Origin: Methanothrix sp.
GTDB lineage: Archaea; Halobacteriota; Methanosarcinia; Methanotrichales; Methanotrichaceae
DNA length: 64,000 nt
Reading direction: 5' to 3'
NCBI GenBank assembly: GCA_026394565.1
Contig: JAPKYA010000002.1
Coordinates: 1 to 64,000, forward strand
Positions 17,955-27,070 of this stretch are shown here, piece after piece. The notes under the pieces are model-generated. The model searched no databases, was not told the origin of the DNA, and was given only the letters and a program-made list of their open reading frames with translations. A program made the translations under genes and the position numbers. The stretch's first letter is position 1. Each line of letters opens with the position of its first letter.

Positions 17955-18028
17955 GCCTCGATAGCTTAGCCCGGTATAGCGCGTCCTTGGTAAGGACGAG
18001 GTCGCGGGTTCGAATCCCGTCCGAGGCT
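17955..18028 (+). tRNA. tRNA-Thr (anticodon GGT)
   Basis: GCCTCGATAGCTTAGCCCGGTATAGCGCGTCCTTGGTAAGGACGAGGTCGCGGGTTCGAATCCCGTCCGAGGCT folds as a cloverleaf; 7-nt anticodon loop TTGGTAA. Confidence 0.9.
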
Positions 18029-18073: not shown

Positions 18074-18505
18074 ACGGACAAGAAGAGCATATTGATTATC
18101 GACGACGATAGAGTCATGCTTAATAGCTTCAAGCTTCTCTTGGAGATGAAGGGTTACTTAACAGATACAGCAGAATCTGGAAGTGAAGCCATCGAAAAGG
18201 TACGCTGCAAATATTTTAATCTGGCATTGATTGACATCAGCCTTCCTGATATGGATGGAACAGCTCTTCTCTCTGAATTTCGCGAGCTTAACCCGGAGAT
18301 GAAAAAGATAATCATTACAGGTTATTCCACTAGAGAAAATGCCATTGAATCCCTAAATCTAGGGGCAAACGCATATTTAGAAAAGCCGGTAACTCCAGGA
18401 AAATTGCTGGAATTCGTGACAAAAAAATTGGCGGAACAAGAATATGAGATCAAGTATCATGAGGATACTGTGAATAACTTGATCCAATCCCGTAAGCAAG
18501 CTTGA
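18074..18505 (+). CDS. Stand-alone response-regulator receiver domain protein
   Basis: (T)DKKSILIIDDDRVMLNSFKLLLEMKGYLTDTAESGSEAIEKV...ALIDISLPDMDGTALL...YLEKPVTP. Start ambiguous: ACG at 18074 behind GAGGTGA, or TTG at 18092. Confidence 0.88.
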   Translation, partial: TDKKSILIIDDDRVMLNSFKLLLEMKGYLTDTAESGSEAIEKVRCKYFNLALIDISLPDMDGTALLSEFRELNPEMKKIIITGYSTRENAIESLNLGANAYLEKPVTPGKLLEFVTKKLAEQEYEIKYHEDTVNNLIQSRKQA

Positions 18506-18597: not shown

Positions 18598-19690
18598 GCA
18601 CATTGTCCCAGGCTCGGAGCACCTCCGCCACCGACCAGGCCTGAGAGATGCAGCCGCCCGGCCGCTGGGGGCAGTCGCCGTCAAAGACCTCGGGTAGAGT
18701 GTTAATCCCCGCCGACCTGCATGGTTATCAAGGGCCGGAGAAGCTCTCTGGCCTCTCCCAGGACCGACTCGGACCTGCCGTTCACAGAGAGCAGAGCATC
18801 AATGTACGGCCCCATGAGCCAGGGCCAGACGGTGCCCTGGTGGTAGGCCCCATCCCGGCGGCGAGCATCGTCCTCGTACCTGCCCGCATAGCGCATATCG
18901 CGAGGCGAGAGCGTTCGGAGGCCAGAAGGCGTGAGCAATTCCTTTGTTACAACATCAAGAATGCCCTCTCTCTTAATCCGGGGCAGCAGATCGGGAATTC
19001 CTGCGGCGATGATCTGATTTGGCCGGATGGAGGCGTCCTCATGATCAATTACATCATAAAGGCAGCCGGTCTCACTGTTCCAAAACCTCTGGTAGCCGTT
19101 CCTGGCCTTTCGGCCAGCTCTGCGAACCCAGGACCCTGGGACTTGCCTATTGCCTCGCCCAACTTTTGCATATCTCTCAAGGCGCAGAACCAGAGCGCAT
19201 TTATCTCGCAGCATTTTCCCGCCCGCGGCGACACCGGCCGGCCACCCAGGCGCGCGTCCATCCAGGTGAGCGCGGGGCCGGATACGATCAGACCATCCTC
19301 GGCCCCGCCAAAGTCCTCTCCCGGCCTGGAATAGCGACGAAATACCTCCAGCAGCCTTTGCCAGAGCTGCCCGACAAACTCCCGGTCTTTCGAAAAAGGA
19401 TTTCAGGACCTTCCCGGCCTCCTCAAAGCGCCCAGTGCAGAGCAAGAGGCCGGGCAGGGAGATCATGGCGTCCCTCCCCCAATCATCAAACCAGTGGTAT
19501 CCGGCGATGAGGCTCATGCCCTGTCCTCTTTTCACCAGGAACGAGTCAGCGGCCCCGGCCAGTTCCTGAAGGGGAGCCGTCAGCTTTTCCAGGCGCTCCT
19601 TTTCTTTTTTCTGCTCTGTCCTCCAGTCAGGCATGGAGATGGGCAAGCATCCTCTCCAGTTGGAAAAAATTCTTTTAGGCCTGCAAACCT
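18598..19690 (-). pseudogene. Degraded amylo-alpha-1,6-glucosidase (glycogen debranching enzyme), 5' part missing and several frameshifts
   Basis: Frame A: AADSFLVKRGQGMSLIAGYHWFDDWGRDAMISLPGLLLCTGRFEEAGKVLK; frame B: ALTWMDARLGGRPVSPRAGKCCEINALWFCALRDM; frame A again: GYQRFWNSETGCLYDVIDHEDASIRPNQIIAAGI; third frame: [39 protein letters not shown]. All align in order with the intact copy at 23655-25538. Confidence 0.9.
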
Positions 19691-19755
19691 ATGAAATGAT
19701 TTTTTATATATCCTGATTTCTCTTTAGGTACAGGGACCATAGAGGGTGGATAATA

Positions 19756-21480
19756 ATGTCCATTAAACCGAAGAGTCTTAAAACATTAAACTTTAAGCCA
19801 TTTTGCAGAGTATTCCCTTCGCCTAATGATTGGAGAGACCAGTTTATATATCATTTGCTTATAGACAGATTCAATAGCACAGGACCAGATATACCGCCTT
19901 ACGATCCTGCCTTAGTTCCAAGATTGAGATGTGACACAGATGGTGATAAATGGCAGGGTGGAAATTTAATAGGAATTAGAAACAGACTTGATTATATTAG
20001 TGGCCTCGGATGCACTGCCTTATGGGTAACTCCAATATTTAAAAACCGCAAAGAGATGGATACATTTCATGGTTATGCTGTGCAAAATTTCCTAGATGTT
20101 GATCCTAGATTCGGAACGCTTAAAGATTTTCAATGCCTTGTTAGAGAAGCGCATGAAAGGAGCATGTATATAATTCTTGATATCGTCTTAGGCTATACAG
20201 GAGACAATTGGACATATCCAGACGGATATCCATTCTATATCGAAGGCAAAAAATATCCATTTGGATCTTGGCGATTGGCGGACCCAACACGCGGTATTCA
20301 ATGGCCCGACGATGCAATATGGCCTCTTGAATTTCAAAATCCGGAATGGTATATGAGAAACGGAGAGATTCGAGATTGGACTTCGTATCCTGAAAACATG
20401 GTGAGCGATTTCATTTCTATGAAGAAGCTCGATACCTCAAATCCCGAAGTTGTGAAAGCTCTTATAGATGTCTATAGATATTGGATTGCAGTTTCAGACG
20501 TCGATGGCTATTGTATAGATGCAGCAAAACATATAGAAGAACCGAGCATCGCAAGGATCTCGTCAGCAATAAGGGAATATGCTTACAGCATCGGCAAGAA
20601 GAATTTCTTAATATGCGGGGAGATTTATGGGGGCGATGAGCTTATTGAGCGATATTTAAGGTGCAAAGGTTCATCATCCTGCATCCGCAAGGATTTTCAG
20701 TCTATTAATGCCGTCCTCGATTATCCATTACGAGAGACTTTAGAGTGGGTTATTAAAGGATACATTAATCCCAAGGAGTTGATAGAAAGATACGAACATC
20801 TCAACAAGACTTGGCATGATATTGAGTGGATTGGCCATCATTTTGTGACCTTTGCTGATGATCATAATGTAAAAGATAGTTCAATGATCGGTAGGTTTCT
20901 CTATAATAATCGATTTTATAAACAGGTCATTCTAGCAATTGGGTATCTGCTAACTAGTAAAGGAATTCCTCGGATCTACTATGGAACTGAGCAGGGATTT
21001 GATGGAGGAGGAAAAGACAATCTTTATCCGGATAAATATAAGAGAGAGTGTATGTTTGGTGGAAAATGGGGGGCTTTTAATACAACCGGCCATCATTTCT
21101 TTAATCCTAAAAACCCAATCTACCAAGAAATTAGCCACATAGCAAAGATAAGAAAGCAGGAACCGGCATTGCGATATGGGAGGCAATACTTTAGGGCGAT
21201 TTCTGGTAATGGCGTGGATTTTGGTTATCCTATTGATGGTAAATGCACTCTTGCGTATTCTAGAATCTTGGATGACACAGAGATCCTCATTGCAATGAAT
21301 TTAGATTCAAAGCCAAGGATTGAGCTTGTAACTGTTGATTATAACTTATCACCAGCACAGAAAGAAATGGTAAATCTATTAGGACCGGAGAAAAGCTACG
21401 TTGTGAATTTAATTGGTGATCGACATGCTGTCAGAATACCTTTAGATTGCCATGAAATGGCTATTTTAAAATTAAGATAA
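19756..21480 (+). CDS. Alpha-amylase family glycoside hydrolase (GH13-like)
   Basis: DQFIYHLLIDRFN, GCTALWVTPIF, DVDGYCIDAAKHI, FLICGEIYGGDE, FVTFADDHNVKD, GIPRIYYGTEQGFDGGG. Confidence 0.92.
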   Translation: MSIKPKSLKTLNFKPFCRVFPSPNDWRDQFIYHLLIDRFNSTGPDIPPYDPALVPRLRCDTDGDKWQGGNLIGIRNRLDYISGLGCTALWVTPIFKNRKEMDTFHGYAVQNFLDVDPRFGTLKDFQCLVREAHERSMYIILDIVLGYTGDNWTYPDGYPFYIEGKKYPFGSWRLADPTRGIQWPDDAIWPLEFQNPEWYMRNGEIRDWTSYPENMVSDFISMKKLDTSNPEVVKALIDVYRYWIAVSDVDGYCIDAAKHIEEPSIARISSAIREYAYSIGKKNFLICGEIYGGDELIERYLRCKGSSSCIRKDFQSINAVLDYPLRETLEWVIKGYINPKELIERYEHLNKTWHDIEWIGHHFVTFADDHNVKDSSMIGRFLYNNRFYKQVILAIGYLLTSKGIPRIYYGTEQGFDGGGKDNLYPDKYKRECMFGGKWGAFNTTGHHFFNPKNPIYQEISHIAKIRKQEPALRYGRQYFRAISGNGVDFGYPIDGKCTLAYSRILDDTEILIAMNLDSKPRIELVTVDYNLSPAQKEMVNLLGPEKSYVVNLIGDRHAVRIPLDCHEMAILKLR

Positions 21481-21635
21481 TACTGGGATAAAAAATGTAT
21501 TGAATTATATATCTATATCTAAAACTATGGCATATTCAAATTAATTATTTTAAAGAATTTGAATCAATACCCAGAAACTTTTATATAGATTACGATCCTA
21601 AACATAAAAGTACCTAATACAATTCGGGATCCATA

Positions 21636-22532
21636 ATGCCGATAAGAAGAGAATTCGGGGAGATAGCTGGGCGGTATGTAGGCAAATCTCATCTGGGTGA
21701 TTTAAAATGTGGTTATTTAGATATAGTAGGTGAAACTAATCCCAAATTGAGCAACTTGCCTATTATTGAAAATGGAAAAGAAAAATATGACTTTTATGTT
21801 TATGAATACTGGTGGACTTTAGGATTTACAAGGACAATTTCTGAGCGTGCAAGCTGCAAACATGAAGGGAAAACAGTTTCGACAGAGCCATATCACCGAC
21901 GCAGCGGAGGTTGGACAAATCTGAAAAAAAGCGGGAACGAGGCGATTCTAGTTCAAGTTTTTTTTCACACGCAAGATACTAACTATTCCGTCAGGGATAT
22001 TGCAGGAACCATTAAACCACCTTTTATGATTCAAAGAAGAGTAAGGGATTTCTTAGGAGATAGCTGGATGAGGCTTACTGGGACGGCCGTACAGTCGTTC
22101 GGAGAATACGCAAAAATACCTATGGTGAAGGAAATAAGTTCAGGGGTAACAGATGCGATTGCTCGGTTCGAGAAAGACGCAGCTCCCTCATCCAGTGCAT
22201 ATCCTTGGATTTCGAAGAAAATTGCAACATATGAGGGAGAGGGAAAAGAATTGAAGCAAATAGATGGCGTTGAGTGGCGTATTAGTAGAAGAGCGCACTT
22301 GAACTTAGGAAATAGATTGGAGGGCGCATTAGGACTTACTTTTATCGCATCTTCTGAAAAAGAAAATGCCAAACCACTCGAATTAGAAATCCGAGCACGA
22401 ATATCTTTTGAAAAGTCTAAAAAAAATGATTTAAATGCAGATAGTTCGATCTGGATACCATGGGACCCAAATGAATCAAATTTTGACGAAAAGAAAATAT
22501 GCTTGGCTGTAACGCCAATAAATCCAAATTGA
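21636..22532 (+). CDS. Hypothetical protein, 298 aa, within the alpha-glucan island
   Basis: Complete ORF between two same-strand glycosidase genes. No family recognised. Confidence 0.7.
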   Translation: MPIRREFGEIAGRYVGKSHLGDLKCGYLDIVGETNPKLSNLPIIENGKEKYDFYVYEYWWTLGFTRTISERASCKHEGKTVSTEPYHRRSGGWTNLKKSGNEAILVQVFFHTQDTNYSVRDIAGTIKPPFMIQRRVRDFLGDSWMRLTGTAVQSFGEYAKIPMVKEISSGVTDAIARFEKDAAPSSSAYPWISKKIATYEGEGKELKQIDGVEWRISRRAHLNLGNRLEGALGLTFIASSEKENAKPLELEIRARISFEKSKKNDLNADSSIWIPWDPNESNFDEKKICLAVTPINPN

Positions 22533-22545
22533 TTTTGGAGACGAC

Positions 22546-23610
22546 ATGTCGAGTATCGAAAGAACGGTTGAATTGTCCATGAAAGTGCTAATGGATTGCT
22601 GCCTCGAAAACGGAGCCATTGTTGCGGCTAACGCGATAAAAAACTATTATCCAGCCACCGCGGGTTGTTACTTCTACGTCTGGCCGCGAGATGCTTCTTA
22701 CGTGTGTATCGCAGCAGATTTGATGGGCATATGCGACATTCAAGAGGCGTTCTTTAAGTGGTGTCTCGAACGAGCAGAAGGATTCAGCCAGACAGGATTA
22801 TTTTTTGAGAAATACTACGTAAATGGGCTAAAGGCTTCGAGGAGGTTTCAACCAGATCAGACAGCGACCGTCCTTTTTGCCATCTGGCATCACTATCAGG
22901 ACGACCTGAAAAGCTCTCTAATATTCAAAGATTTGATTACTAAAGCAGCAGACGGCCTATGTACGAGATGGGAAATTGATCATTTTGATATCGTCACCAC
23001 TGATCTGTGGGAAGAGAGGCTAACCTTTCCGGATTTGGAAGATAACTTCACATATTCCTTAGCGGCGTGCATAAGAGGACTGGAATGCGCAAATGCCTTG
23101 ATTGTGAATAATAAATGGCAGAAAGTATCAAGGCAAATGAGAGAACAACTTGAGAAACATGTTGTGAATGGATATTTCGTAAGATCCTATGGTAAGTTGA
23201 AAGATGAACGTATCGATGCCTCATTGCTTGGCTTGGTCTATCCTTTTGGTATCTATAAAGCAGACGATCCAAAGGTAATTCTTAGCGTAAGAGAGATTGA
23301 GAAAAAGCTAGTAATCGATGGAGGTGTGCATAGGTACGAATTCGACGAGTATGATGGATGGATATATGAAGAAATACATCGTAAGAAGGGTGCTGGCGCT
23401 TGGCCCTTATTGAACTTCTGGCTTTCAATCTACTATTCGCTAAAGGGCGATGGAGATCATGCAGTAGAATGCTATAATTGGGTTTTAGACAAAGTAAATG
23501 GTTACATTCCAGAGCAGATCTTTGATAATGAACTCCAAGTCTCTATCTGCCCATTGGCATGGTCTCATGCAATGTTCATAATCGCCTCGAAGCTTTTGGG
23601 ATACATTTAA
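22546..23610 (+). CDS. Glycoside hydrolase family 15-like (glucoamylase/glucodextranase type) protein
   Basis: YFYVWPRDASYVCIAADLMG, DLWEERLTFPDLEDNFTYSLAACIRGL, EQIFDNELQVSICPLAWSHAMFI. Confidence 0.85.
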   Translation: MSSIERTVELSMKVLMDCCLENGAIVAANAIKNYYPATAGCYFYVWPRDASYVCIAADLMGICDIQEAFFKWCLERAEGFSQTGLFFEKYYVNGLKASRRFQPDQTATVLFAIWHHYQDDLKSSLIFKDLITKAADGLCTRWEIDHFDIVTTDLWEERLTFPDLEDNFTYSLAACIRGLECANALIVNNKWQKVSRQMREQLEKHVVNGYFVRSYGKLKDERIDASLLGLVYPFGIYKADDPKVILSVREIEKKLVIDGGVHRYEFDEYDGWIYEEIHRKKGAGAWPLLNFWLSIYYSLKGDGDHAVECYNWVLDKVNGYIPEQIFDNELQVSICPLAWSHAMFIIASKLLGYI

Positions 23611-23654
23611 ATGAGACTGTAATTATCATGAATTAGACAATCAATATAGTTTGA

Positions 23655-25538
23655 TCAATAATGCAAATTAGGGAATAATTCGCTTTTTCCCCCCAATATA
23701 ATATCCTCGTACCAAGCTCGCATAACTTCGGCAACCGACCAAGCTTGGGATATGCAGCCTCTGGGCATATGGGGTGCATCTCCGTCTAGGATCTCTGGGA
23801 TTGTATTGATGCCTGCTTGGTTAAAAGCAATAAGTGGACTTAGGATCTCTTTGGCCTGCACTCTGCTCTCTTCTGAATACCGATTAACCGAGAGAAAAGC
23901 TGTAATATAAGGACCTAAGAGCCATGGCCAGACAGTGCCCTGATGATATGCCAGCGATCGCTCGTTCCAGTTGCCCTCATATTTTCCAATATACCGTGAA
24001 TCTTCAAAGGATAGCGTTCTTAAGCCATATGGAGTTAAAAGCTCACGCGTCACTACGTCGACTATGCTCTTCTTCTGTTCTAGCGAAAGAAGATCAAAGG
24101 AGATCGCAGCTGCAATTATCTGGTTTGGCCTTATTGAGCTGTCTCTTGGGTTTATTACGTCGTAGAGGCATCCCTTATCCTCATTCCAGAACTCTTGATA
24201 GCTATTCTTCACGCGTTCAGACATCTTGTCTTCCCTCTCTTCGCCCAAATAGCCAGCTAGGATATCCATTATTCTCAGAGAGCTGTACCATAGGGCGTTG
24301 ATTTCGCATGCTTTTCCTGCTCTGGGAGTTACTGGCACTCCATTCACCTGAGCATCCATCCAGGTCAGAGCGGGTTCCGTGTTTATGAGATAATCAGAAT
24401 GCATGCACGCTCCAGGTATACATGTTGAGTAGCTATCTATTATGCAATTCATTGAAGGCCATAGATGACGAATGAATTCGAGATCTCTGGTGTACTTAAA
24501 GAGACTGAAGACCGCTTGGATAAACCAAAGAGAAGCATCAATGGTGTTGTAGGATCCGGCATCTAAGTCGTTGGGCAAAATTCCATCCTTCATCGCTCCT
24601 GCGAATATTTTCAGCACTGCTCGTGCATCATTGAAGCGTCCAGTTACTAGAAGCAAACCAGGCACTGAGATCATTGCATCTCTTCCCCAATCACCGAACC
24701 AATGATAGCCTGCAATTATGCTCTTTCCCAAACCCCTTTTCACAATGAAGGAATCTGCCGCTTGGGCCAAGTTCTGAACTGGTGCGCGAAGGTTGTTGAC
24801 AAATAACAATTCTTGTTCTAGCGATTTCTCCGGATCAAGAGCTGAGGCTCTCCAAGTTGACGCAATTATTTCAAAAGATGTATAATTATCCAAATCAACT
24901 TCGAAGTATCCGGGGCTAAATAAGTTTTCCTTCCAGGAAAGGCCGCGTCTCCTCTCCTCTTCGTACAAAAAGTTGTAGTAATTCATATCTTGTCTAACAT
25001 ATCGAGCTTTATCTGAAAGAAGAAAAAAGTCGCAATGCGATTTAAGGAGAACACCTCCTTGGACTAAAGTTTGATGGATGGTTGGGGAATCGGAAGCGAT
25101 GTGGAAGTTTCTGCAATTGACTAAGGGTACAATTCGCATGAGCCCTGAGCCCCCAATCACACTGTAGCGAACGACGGTAGTATTCTCTCCGAAGATCATA
25201 AATACTTTCTTATCGATTCTGACTTCGCCGATCTGATATGTAAAATGGGGGAGCGGGTCTAGATTGAACTCGCTAAGGTATCTAAAGCCCTCCGGATAAA
25301 CAACATCAGGATATTGATGATTCGCGAGCAAAAATCCATTCATATCTTCGTCGAGAGAAGAAAGCAGCAGTCTCCTATCTGCAGGAGATGACATAGCAGC
25401 GACCAGCAGCCCGTGATAGGCCCGCGTGTTGGCGCCCAAGGCTGTAGAGGAGGCATAGCCGCCCAGGCCGTTGGCCAGCAGCCACTCCCGGCTCGCGCCC
25501 TCAACATAACTCTGCGGGCGAAGGGCGAATCCGTTCAT
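23655..25538 (-). CDS. Amylo-alpha-1,6-glucosidase / glycogen debranching enzyme (GDE)
   Basis: [83 protein letters not shown]. Confidence 0.94.
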   Translation of the reverse strand: MNGFALRPQSYVEGASREWLLANGLGGYASSTALGANTRAYHGLLVAAMSSPADRRLLLSSLDEDMNGFLLANHQYPDVVYPEGFRYLSEFNLDPLPHFTYQIGEVRIDKKVFMIFGENTTVVRYSVIGGSGLMRIVPLVNCRNFHIASDSPTIHQTLVQGGVLLKSHCDFFLLSDKARYVRQDMNYYNFLYEEERRRGLSWKENLFSPGYFEVDLDNYTSFEIIASTWRASALDPEKSLEQELLFVNNLRAPVQNLAQAADSFIVKRGLGKSIIAGYHWFGDWGRDAMISVPGLLLVTGRFNDARAVLKIFAGAMKDGILPNDLDAGSYNTIDASLWFIQAVFSLFKYTRDLEFIRHLWPSMNCIIDSYSTCIPGACMHSDYLINTEPALTWMDAQVNGVPVTPRAGKACEINALWYSSLRIMDILAGYLGEEREDKMSERVKNSYQEFWNEDKGCLYDVINPRDSSIRPNQIIAAAISFDLLSLEQKKSIVDVVTRELLTPYGLRTLSFEDSRYIGKYEGNWNERSLAYHQGTVWPWLLGPYITAFLSVNRYSEESRVQAKEILSPLIAFNQAGINTIPEILDGDAPHMPRGCISQAWSVAEVMRAWYEDIILGGKSELFPNLHY

Positions 25539-27070
25539 TTTCCCTCCGAGAGGGCGGCATCCACTGCCGATAGCAGGCTTTTGCGCAGTCTTTCCCCCTT
25601 GCCGCCCCTTATTTTGGCCAACTGCTGCGCGAGAGGCGCATCTGCGAGGCTGGTCGCGGCCCAGAGGGCCAGATCTCCCCGGCTATTATGATATTGCAAT
25701 GAGTCGAGCGATACGGTCTTTAAAATATTCTGCATGCCGGCCAGGCTCCAGGCGACCTCTCCAGTGAACTGATCCACGCCTGTGGCAAAGCGGAAGGGCG
25801 AATCGGCCAGATGGATCTTCTTCTTAAGACGGTAGTGCAGGTCACACAGAACGCTGAAGTAGGTGACTGAGGCATCATAAGGAATGCCGTAGGGGCTGAA
25901 GTAGCTGTGCACCTCACCTGGGCCCCCGCCGTGGGTGAAGATGTAATAGAGATGATCAGATAGGCCAAGCGTCCTCCAGATCCAAAGGAGATCCTCGTCT
26001 TTGCTCTCCTTGACCGGTGCCTCCAGCCTCTTCTGGTAGATGAAGCAGGCCTGCTGCAGAGCATTACCCAGCCAGCAGCTCGTATCCCTCTCCAGGTCCG
26101 CCCAGGAGACATAATTCGGCACAGAGAGCTCCATTTTTGGGGGGGTGTCTCTTGCAATCTCGGCGGGCGTGGCGAAGCTGAGGTTTTCGTGCTTCATTAT
26201 CTCATCGGGCAGGTGGCGCAGAAACTCAAAGATGCCCGTGTCCACCCACTGATGCTCGCCGAAGGTCTCATAGTCGCAGAAGATGTTTATGCACTGGCCG
26301 GGGGTGGCGGCGAGCCAGCCGGCATACTTGTCGGCAGTGAGGGGATACTCCTCCCAGTTGTGCGAGGAGAAGCGAAAGCCGATGTCGTCTGTAAGCTTAT
26401 AATTTCTCAGCAGCAAAGAGATGCCGGTCTTGGGAGGCCGGTAAACGTAGTTTGGATCGGCCACCACACCCTCGGTGAAGACGGCCTTGTATCCCATGCC
26501 CTCGACCATTCCGGCAATCTCGTCATTGTAAATGAGCTCTGTGTTCTCGAAGGTAGTGGGGTGTAGCCCAAAGATGTCCCAGATAAGCTCTCTGTGCATC
26601 TTGACCTCCTCGAAGAACTCGCTCTTGTCCTCGTAGAGGCTGGCCAGAGAGTGATAGTAGGTCTGCTCCATCACCTCCACATTGGCCGTCTCCACCAGAT
26701 TGACAAAGGATTCCAAGACCTCGGGACGATAGGCGCGGCACTGCTCTAGGAAGACGCCGGAGAAGCTGTAAGCGACCTTAAAGGGCCTGTCCGCCCCCTC
26801 ATGCTTTCTAATGCACTCTAAGATCACCTCGTTGGCAGGCAGATAACATTTGTCGGATACGCGCTCAAATATCCTCCTATTCTCGGAATCATCGAAATAA
26901 AACTCCCGCAAATTGGGCACAACCTCCTTTAGGGGAGAGCTGTCCCAGAAGAAATTTTTCTTGAGACGGAGGGGCTGGTGGACCTCAAAGCAGAGGGAAA
27001 CAAGGGTCATGTTTTCTATATCTGGCTGCAAAATATTTACATCCTTCGCGCGGTCTTCCCGATTATCCAC
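25535..27070 (-). CDS. GH57 family alpha-amylase
   Basis: SLCFEVHQPLRLKKNFFWD, FENTELIYNDEIAGMVEGMGYKAVFTEG, FCDYETFGEHQWVDTGIFEFL. Confidence 0.93.
   Translation of the reverse strand: MDNREDRAKDVNILQPDIENMTLVSLCFEVHQPLRLKKNFFWDSSPLKEVVPNLREFYFDDSENRRIFERVSDKCYLPANEVILECIRKHEGADRPFKVAYSFSGVFLEQCRAYRPEVLESFVNLVETANVEVMEQTYYHSLASLYEDKSEFFEEVKMHRELIWDIFGLHPTTFENTELIYNDEIAGMVEGMGYKAVFTEGVVADPNYVYRPPKTGISLLLRNYKLTDDIGFRFSSHNWEEYPLTADKYAGWLAATPGQCINIFCDYETFGEHQWVDTGIFEFLRHLPDEIMKHENLSFATPAEIARDTPPKMELSVPNYVSWADLERDTSCWLGNALQQACFIYQKRLEAPVKESKDEDLLWIWRTLGLSDHLYYIFTHGGGPGEVHSYFSPYGIPYDASVTYFSVLCDLHYRLKKKIHLADSPFRFATGVDQFTGEVAWSLAGMQNILKTVSLDSLQYHNSRGDLALWAATSLADAPLAQQLAKIRGGKGERLRKSLLSAVDAALSEGK

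What the first reader, a model, noticed from the sequence alone, without database searches (positions are those of the whole stretch)
18598..25538. Carbohydrate island inserted inside a debranching-enzyme gene, leaving a chimeric intact copy and a pseudogene remnant
Direct: bases 25538 to about 25400 of the intact GDE gene are very GC-rich (44/60 G+C by hand count in the line at 25441), while the rest of that gene and the genes to 19756 are AT-rich (21/60 in the line at 20161). At the far edge lies a GC-rich, frameshifted remnant of the same family that starts at roughly residue 245 of the intact protein. Both edges therefore fall in GDE sequence. The GDE start overlaps the GC-rich GH57 stop as ATGA, as in a native operon. 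Inference: an incoming AT-rich GH13 + unknown + GH15 + GDE segment recombined into the resident GDE, keeping its first ~45 codons and stranding its 3' part, which then decayed.
Basis: partly seen in the sequence, partly recalled or inferred. Interest (0 to 1): 0.62.

Follow-up and report, generated by a model that had tools for sequence, protein, structure and literature searches.

The report
Foreign DNA hijacked a glycogen gene
In this methane-making archaeon a 5.8-kb piece of foreign DNA recombined into the resident glycogen-debranching gene, so that the first ~30 codons now run into a foreign enzyme body while the old gene's tail sits 5.8 kb away as a fresh pseudogene: a clean natural snapshot of known processes, gene displacement with homology at one end only.

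Summary
A 5.73-5.82 kb AT-rich segment (about 19,636/19,665 to 25,395/25,451; GC 0.408, while same-length blocks elsewhere in the window never fall below 0.470) carries GH13, an unknown gene, GH15 and the body of a glycogen-debranching enzyme (GDE). Same-genus relatives carry one GDE, downstream of GH57, exactly where the remnant and the hybrid now sit. The remnant (18,608-19,635) is the resident gene: up to 87% identical to the nearest relatives, sister to G009, with a lost 5' part, a 110-nt deletion and two 1-nt frameshifts. The intact GDE is chimeric: identity to G009 falls from 91% to 58% at 25,451 (codon 30). Its body branches outside the genus, from an unsampled lineage of the same family (AU p = 0.0017 against membership of the genus). 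Corrections: the retained start is about 30 (at most ~46) codons; ~0.6 kb of resident gene was lost; low GC alone misleads, since the AT-rich response regulator next door is native. Best mechanism: homology-facilitated illegitimate recombination; Campbell integration plus deletion is the main rival. A second species (G217) shows a decayed GDE beside an intact copy elsewhere.

The parts
18608..19635 (-). Decaying remnant of the resident GDE (codons ~236-615 of the G009 protein; homology may reach 19,664); 5' part lost, 110-nt deletion between 19,395 and 19,394, 1-nt loss after 19,107, 1-nt gain near 18,710
   Evidence: pieces 76-87% aa identity to GDE of G009/G020/G021, nucleotide alignment, coordinates, sister of G009 in the tree
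19636..19665 (.). Left junction between foreign DNA and resident GDE, without extended homology; a short TCCAACTGGAGA stretch resembles the resident sequence
   Evidence: alignment with G009/G020/G021, coordinates
19665..25451 (.). Incoming AT-rich segment (right edge between 25,395 and 25,451)
   Evidence: GC 0.408 vs minimum 0.470 elsewhere; gene content absent from same-genus relatives at this place
19756..21480 (+). GH13 alpha-amylase-family enzyme (cyclomaltodextrinase/neopullulanase-like), intact
   Evidence: PF00128 E 7.5e-49; nearest 58% in G221, another genus of the family
21636..22532 (+). Protein of unknown family; homologue lies directly upstream of GH15 in G041 as well
   Evidence: no Pfam/NCBIfam/PHROG/PADLOC match; homologues only in G041 and G177
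22546..23610 (+). Short GH15 enzyme, catalytic domain only, intact
   Evidence: PF00723; 73% to G041, 62-64% to G222/G224; PDB relative isomaltose glucohydrolase
23655..25450 (-). Foreign body of the hybrid GDE (codons ~30-627), full GDE_N/GDE_C domains, open frame
   Evidence: TIGR01561 above cut-off; at most 63% to any relative; outside the genus
25395..25455 (.). Right junction: in-frame crossover inside the conserved GLGGYASST...NTRAYHGLL block of GDE
   Evidence: identity changepoints 25,448-25,451 with G009/G020/G021 and 25,410 with G017; GC3 changepoint codon 46
25451..25538 (-). Resident start of the hybrid GDE (~29 codons), overlapping the GH57 stop as ATGA
   Evidence: 85-92% nucleotide identity to G009 per 60-nt block, continuous with GH57
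25535..27070 (-). Resident GH57 gene upstream of GDE; marks the native operon
   Evidence: 92% aa identity to G009; adjacent to GDE in the same-genus relatives whose contigs reach that far
18092..18505 (+). Response-regulator gene, AT-rich but native; resident neighbour on the other side
   Evidence: 90% identical at the same place in G020 (L043 7885-8289)

Best explanation
A fragment of DNA from an unsampled, probably AT-rich member of the same family (the clade of Methanothrix and its relatives) entered the cell and recombined with the resident GDE. At one end the exchange was homologous and in frame, inside the best-conserved part of the GDE N-domain (about codons 28-46), so the native GH57-GDE start signal now drives the foreign enzyme body. 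At the other end the foreign DNA was joined without extended homology to about codon 231-236 of the same resident gene, deleting ~0.6 kb and stranding its 3' part, which is decaying. This is the product expected of homology-facilitated illegitimate recombination (HFIR). Shown: chimeric gene, remnant identity, breakpoints, foreign affinity of the body, native synteny. Inferred: the recombination route, uptake as one linear fragment, the donor species, and that the hybrid is expressed and replaces the old enzyme while GH13 and GH15 add maltodextrin hydrolysis. The confidence given is for the whole statement with HFIR; for gene displacement by foreign DNA as such it is about 0.92.
For: Native layout GTa-GTb-RR-GDE-GH57-thiolase-HMGS in G020 and near-identical orders in G012, G017, G021, G010. 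One (near-)full-length GDE per genome in about 20 same-genus relatives. Remnant inside the genus, sister of G009; placing it outside is rejected, AU p 2.6e-6. GDE body outside genus+g9+g11+g13 (99.2/100) but inside the family; membership of the genus rejected, AU p 0.0017, and sisterhood with the remnant rejected. Identity step 0.91 to 0.58 at 25,451, lnL gain 256; GC3 step. Precise in-frame fusion and intact foreign ORFs. No direct repeats, transposase or integrase in the segment and no phage or virus match. HFIR is described as homologous at one end, illegitimate at the other, with coupled insertion and deletion (PMC3240628). Uptake of DNA is shown in other methanogens (PMC10133366).
Against: The inserted piece (~5.8 kb) is larger than the ~1 kb typical of HFIR and the deletion (~0.6 kb) smaller. 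Microhomology at the left junction cannot be judged without the donor. The three passenger genes do not share one nearest lineage with GDE: GH15 and the unknown gene are nearest to family f4, GH13 to other genera of the own family with weak support. The SH test does not exclude genus membership of the body (p 0.065). Only one assembly, a draft MAG of 79% completeness, shows the hybrid.
Confidence: 0.72

Rival explanations
1. Campbell-type integration: a circular molecule carrying the foreign GDE, GH15, unknown and GH13 genes integrated by a single homologous crossover in GDE, giving two hybrid GDE copies flanking the insert; the second copy then lost its donor start and resident codons ~30-231 by deletion.
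For: Explains at once why both edges fall in GDE.
Against: No donor GDE start, GH57 or vector-like sequence remains between GH13 and the remnant (only ~90-120 bp lie there); needs a second event with one end exactly at the insert; no replicon or integrase genes, and no plasmid match of 60% identity or more for the GH13 protein, the only one compared with plasmids.
Confidence: 0.2
2. Assembly artefact: the metagenome assembler joined an AT-rich contig of another organism to this genome at the conserved GDE motif and at the remnant.
For: Draft MAG of 124 contigs, 79% complete, seen in one genome only; one junction lies in a conserved motif, where chimeras arise.
Against: Two joins within 6 kb on a 95-kb contig that is otherwise syntenic with relatives; no N's; the remnant carries a 110-nt deletion and two frameshifts and lacks ~0.6 kb, which a chimera would not create; the left join has no long shared sequence to mislead an assembler.
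Confidence: 0.06
3. Old tandem duplication of GDE within the lineage followed by divergence of one copy and decay of the other.
For: Two GDE-family sequences stand side by side in the same orientation.
Against: Body as sister of the remnant rejected with AU p 2.8e-81, and as member of the near species group with p 9e-32; no relative carries two copies here; composition differs strongly.
Confidence: 0.01

Closest known systems
Xenologous gene displacement in situ / mosaic operons (Omelchenko et al. 2003, as cited in PMC1274311 and PMC4455057)
   Same: A foreign orthologue takes the place of the resident gene inside a native operon and the ancestral gene is lost
   Different: Here the displacement is partial within the gene (native start, foreign body), it brings three passenger genes, and the displaced gene's 3' part still lies there as a pseudogene
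Homology-facilitated illegitimate recombination (PMC3240628)
   Same: One homologous end, one end without extended homology, foreign DNA inserted and resident DNA deleted at the same place
   Different: Described in naturally competent bacteria and at low frequency in E. coli conjugation, with ~1 kb insertions; here an archaeon, ~5.8 kb in, ~0.6 kb out, and inferred only from the end product
Archaeal-type glycogen-debranching enzyme (TIGR01561, PF12439 + PF06202)
   Same: Full-length domains, native position after GH57
   Different: Start and body come from different lineages

Membership tests
Xenologous gene displacement in situ | Gene occupies the orthologue's native position | tested here: met
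   Hybrid GDE follows GH57 with ATGA overlap
Xenologous gene displacement in situ | Phylogeny of the gene conflicts with that of the host | tested here: met
   Body outside the genus, AU p 0.0017
Xenologous gene displacement in situ | Ancestral orthologue lost | tested here: met
   Present only as a frameshifted 3' remnant
Homology-facilitated illegitimate recombination | Homologous exchange at one end | tested here: met
   In-frame switch inside a conserved GDE block
Homology-facilitated illegitimate recombination | Other end joined without extended homology | tested here: met
   DNA upstream of GH13 abuts resident codon ~231-236
Homology-facilitated illegitimate recombination | 3-10 bp microhomology at the illegitimate end | not testable with these tools
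   Donor sequence not found; resident-like TCCAACTGGAGA seen at the edge
Homology-facilitated illegitimate recombination | Coupled insertion and deletion | tested here: met
   ~5.8 kb in, ~0.6 kb out
Homology-facilitated illegitimate recombination | RecA-dependent one-step event on a linear fragment | not testable with these tools
   Only the end product is visible
Mobile genetic element / genomic island with integrase | Integrase/transposase or terminal repeats | tested here: not met
   No such gene among the ORFs and no direct repeats at the edges
Archaeal GDE (TIGR01561) | Score above the curated cut-off over the full model | tested here: met
   494.6 bits vs cut-off 364, model 1-569/569

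The most novel reading that the evidence does not exclude
The GDE slot behind GH57 may be a repeated target of gene capture in this archaeal family: conserved GDE motifs would serve as homologous anchors through which foreign carbohydrate genes enter and take over the native operon start. The independent decayed GDE in G217, beside an intact copy elsewhere, would be a second instance.
Probability: 0.12. Interest if true: 0.55.

Novelty: new member of a known kind. Interest (0 to 1): 0.4.

Why it matters
Most horizontal gene displacement is seen long after the event, when the old gene is gone and the breakpoints are erased. Here the hybrid gene, the stranded remnant and both breakpoints are still visible in an archaeon, so the recombination route can largely be read from the sequence. 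It also shows how an incoming gene can be expressed at once, by keeping the resident start in a native operon. It warns that GC dips alone misassign native AT-rich genes, such as the response regulator next door.

Tried and rejected
Mobile-element origin: no integrase, transposase, terminal repeats or viral match for the island genes; plasmids were compared with the GH13 protein only, all matches below 60% identity. tRNA-Thr (17955-18028) as attachment site: the edges lie in GDE, not at the tRNA, and the same tRNA follows GDE in G021 without an island. Donor search: class, family and phylum genome searches gave no GDE above 63% (G213), no GH13 above 58% and no holder of the whole cluster. Structure of the unknown protein: single-sequence fold failed, pLDDT 30, so no fold search was made. 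A local-fit identity table was discarded because its end-gap setting inflated identities.

Full report
What is there. The window is part of a 95-kb contig of a draft archaeal MAG (2.29 Mb, 124 contigs, 79% complete). Between them lie a GC-rich GDE remnant (18,608-19,635, minus strand), then GH13, unknown and GH15 on the plus strand, then an intact 627-aa GDE on the minus strand.

Is the composition step real? Yes. The 5.7-kb block has GC 0.408; blocks of equal length elsewhere in the window never fall below 0.470. GC3 is 0.33-0.46 in the four island genes against 0.56-0.75 in most neighbours. Low GC by itself is not proof: the response regulator 18,092-18,505 has GC 0.40 and GC3 0.42 but is 90% identical to a gene at the same place in G020, so it is native.

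What the relatives show. In a search of 41 genomes (own genome included) the GDE protein was found in 38; about 20 same-genus genomes each gave one near-full-length GDE, 55-61% identical to the window's GDE. In G020 the order is GTa, GTb, response regulator, GDE, GH57, small ORF, OB protein, thiolase, HMGS, that is, the window's order with one intact GDE in place of remnant plus island; G012, G017, G021 and G010 have nearly the same order. GH57, directly beside the window's GDE, is 92% identical to G009 and 88% to G020/G021, while the GDE next to it is only ~60% identical to theirs. The remnant pieces are 76-87% identical to the GDE of G009, G020 and G021, and the DNA after the remnant's end still matches the spacer of G020.

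The remnant is the resident gene. In a tree of 54 relatives plus the window's GDE body and the remnant (560 columns), the remnant is sister to G009 deep inside the genus; placing it outside the genus is rejected (AU p 2.6e-6). It lacks everything before codon ~231-236, has a 110-nt deletion between 19,395 and 19,394, a 1-nt loss at 19,107 (which restores the frame lost by the deletion) and a 1-nt gain near 18,710. Differences from relatives by codon position (30/26/69 of 343 each against G009; 33/22/83 between intact G009 and G021) still look like those of a selected gene, so the decay is recent.

The intact GDE is a chimera. Nucleotide identity to G009 runs at 85-98% through GH57 and the first ~30 codons of GDE and then drops to ~58%; the best changepoint is 25,451 (lnL gain 256). 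With G020 and G021 it is 25,448 (range 25,398-25,453), with G017 25,410; the GC3 changepoint is codon 46 (range 40-50). The crossover therefore lies between codons ~28 and ~46, inside the most conserved stretch of the N-domain. The body (residues 49-609) branches just outside the clade of this genus plus g9, g11 and g13 (99.2/100), still inside the family. Genus membership is rejected by AU (p 0.0017) and KH but not by SH (0.065); descent from a duplication in the near species group is rejected outright. No GDE above 63% identity was found in the family, class or phylum searches. The donor is thus an unsampled relative, probably AT-rich; the sampled genus g13 (G217, GC ~0.43 at this locus) shows that AT-rich members of the family exist.

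Passenger genes. GH13 is nearest to genera g15 and g12 of the family (54-58%), GH15 to G041 of another family (73%) and to G222/G224 of g15 (62-64%), and the unknown gene is found only in G041, again directly before GH15, and in G177. The cluster was not found whole anywhere. In G222 GH15 lies 2.3 kb from GDE beside a TnpB-like gene, and in G224 beside a tyrosine recombinase-like gene (gene names judged from sequence, not tested), so GH15 appears to move.

Mechanism. The end product has one homologous, in-frame junction and one junction without extended homology, with ~5.8 kb gained and ~0.6 kb lost in the same gene. That is the signature of homology-facilitated illegitimate recombination as described in PMC3240628, although the insert is larger than the ~1 kb typical there. 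Natural transformation is known in other methanogens (PMC10133366); in this genus it is an assumption. Campbell integration followed by a deletion gives the same product and cannot be excluded, but needs a second event and leaves no donor GDE start behind. No integrase, transposase or terminal repeats were found. A chimeric assembly is unlikely because of the two joins, the lesions and the deletion, but only reads can exclude it.

Function. All four foreign ORFs are open and the known ones match their catalytic families. Because the GH57-GDE overlap is kept, the hybrid is probably translated by coupling as the old gene was (inference). The likely outcome is replacement of the debranching step of glycogen use, with an added alpha-amylase-type and a GH15 hydrolase for maltodextrins (inference from family membership).

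Assessment. This is a clear and unusually complete natural case of displacement of a gene by a foreign orthologue inside an operon. The kind of event is known (PMC1274311, PMC4455057 and the work they cite); the interest lies in the readable breakpoints in an archaeon.

Noticed in passing
L132 9227-9689 (G217:C189) and L101 (G217:C211): In G217, another genus of the family, the GDE behind GH57 is a frameshifted remnant with a large internal deletion (residues ~127 to ~575 missing), while an intact GDE sits on another contig without GH57: a possible independent displacement.
   Followed up: partly
window 21636-22532: Protein of unknown family with homologues only in G041 (also directly before GH15) and G177 among the genomes searched; fold prediction from the single sequence failed.
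   Followed up: partly
L127 6737-9030 and L128 6859-8576: Homologues of the short GH15 lie next to a TnpB-like gene (G222) and a tyrosine recombinase-like gene (G224), hinting that this GH15 travels.
   Followed up: no
L134 4311-5728 (G220): Fragments of GH57, the glycogen synthase-like gene and the gene before it lie near an intact GH57-GDE pair: another rearranged glycogen locus.
   Followed up: no
window 18092-18505: AT-rich response-regulator gene beside tRNA-Thr, native by synteny with G020 but not found by the same search in the other same-genus loci.
   Followed up: partly
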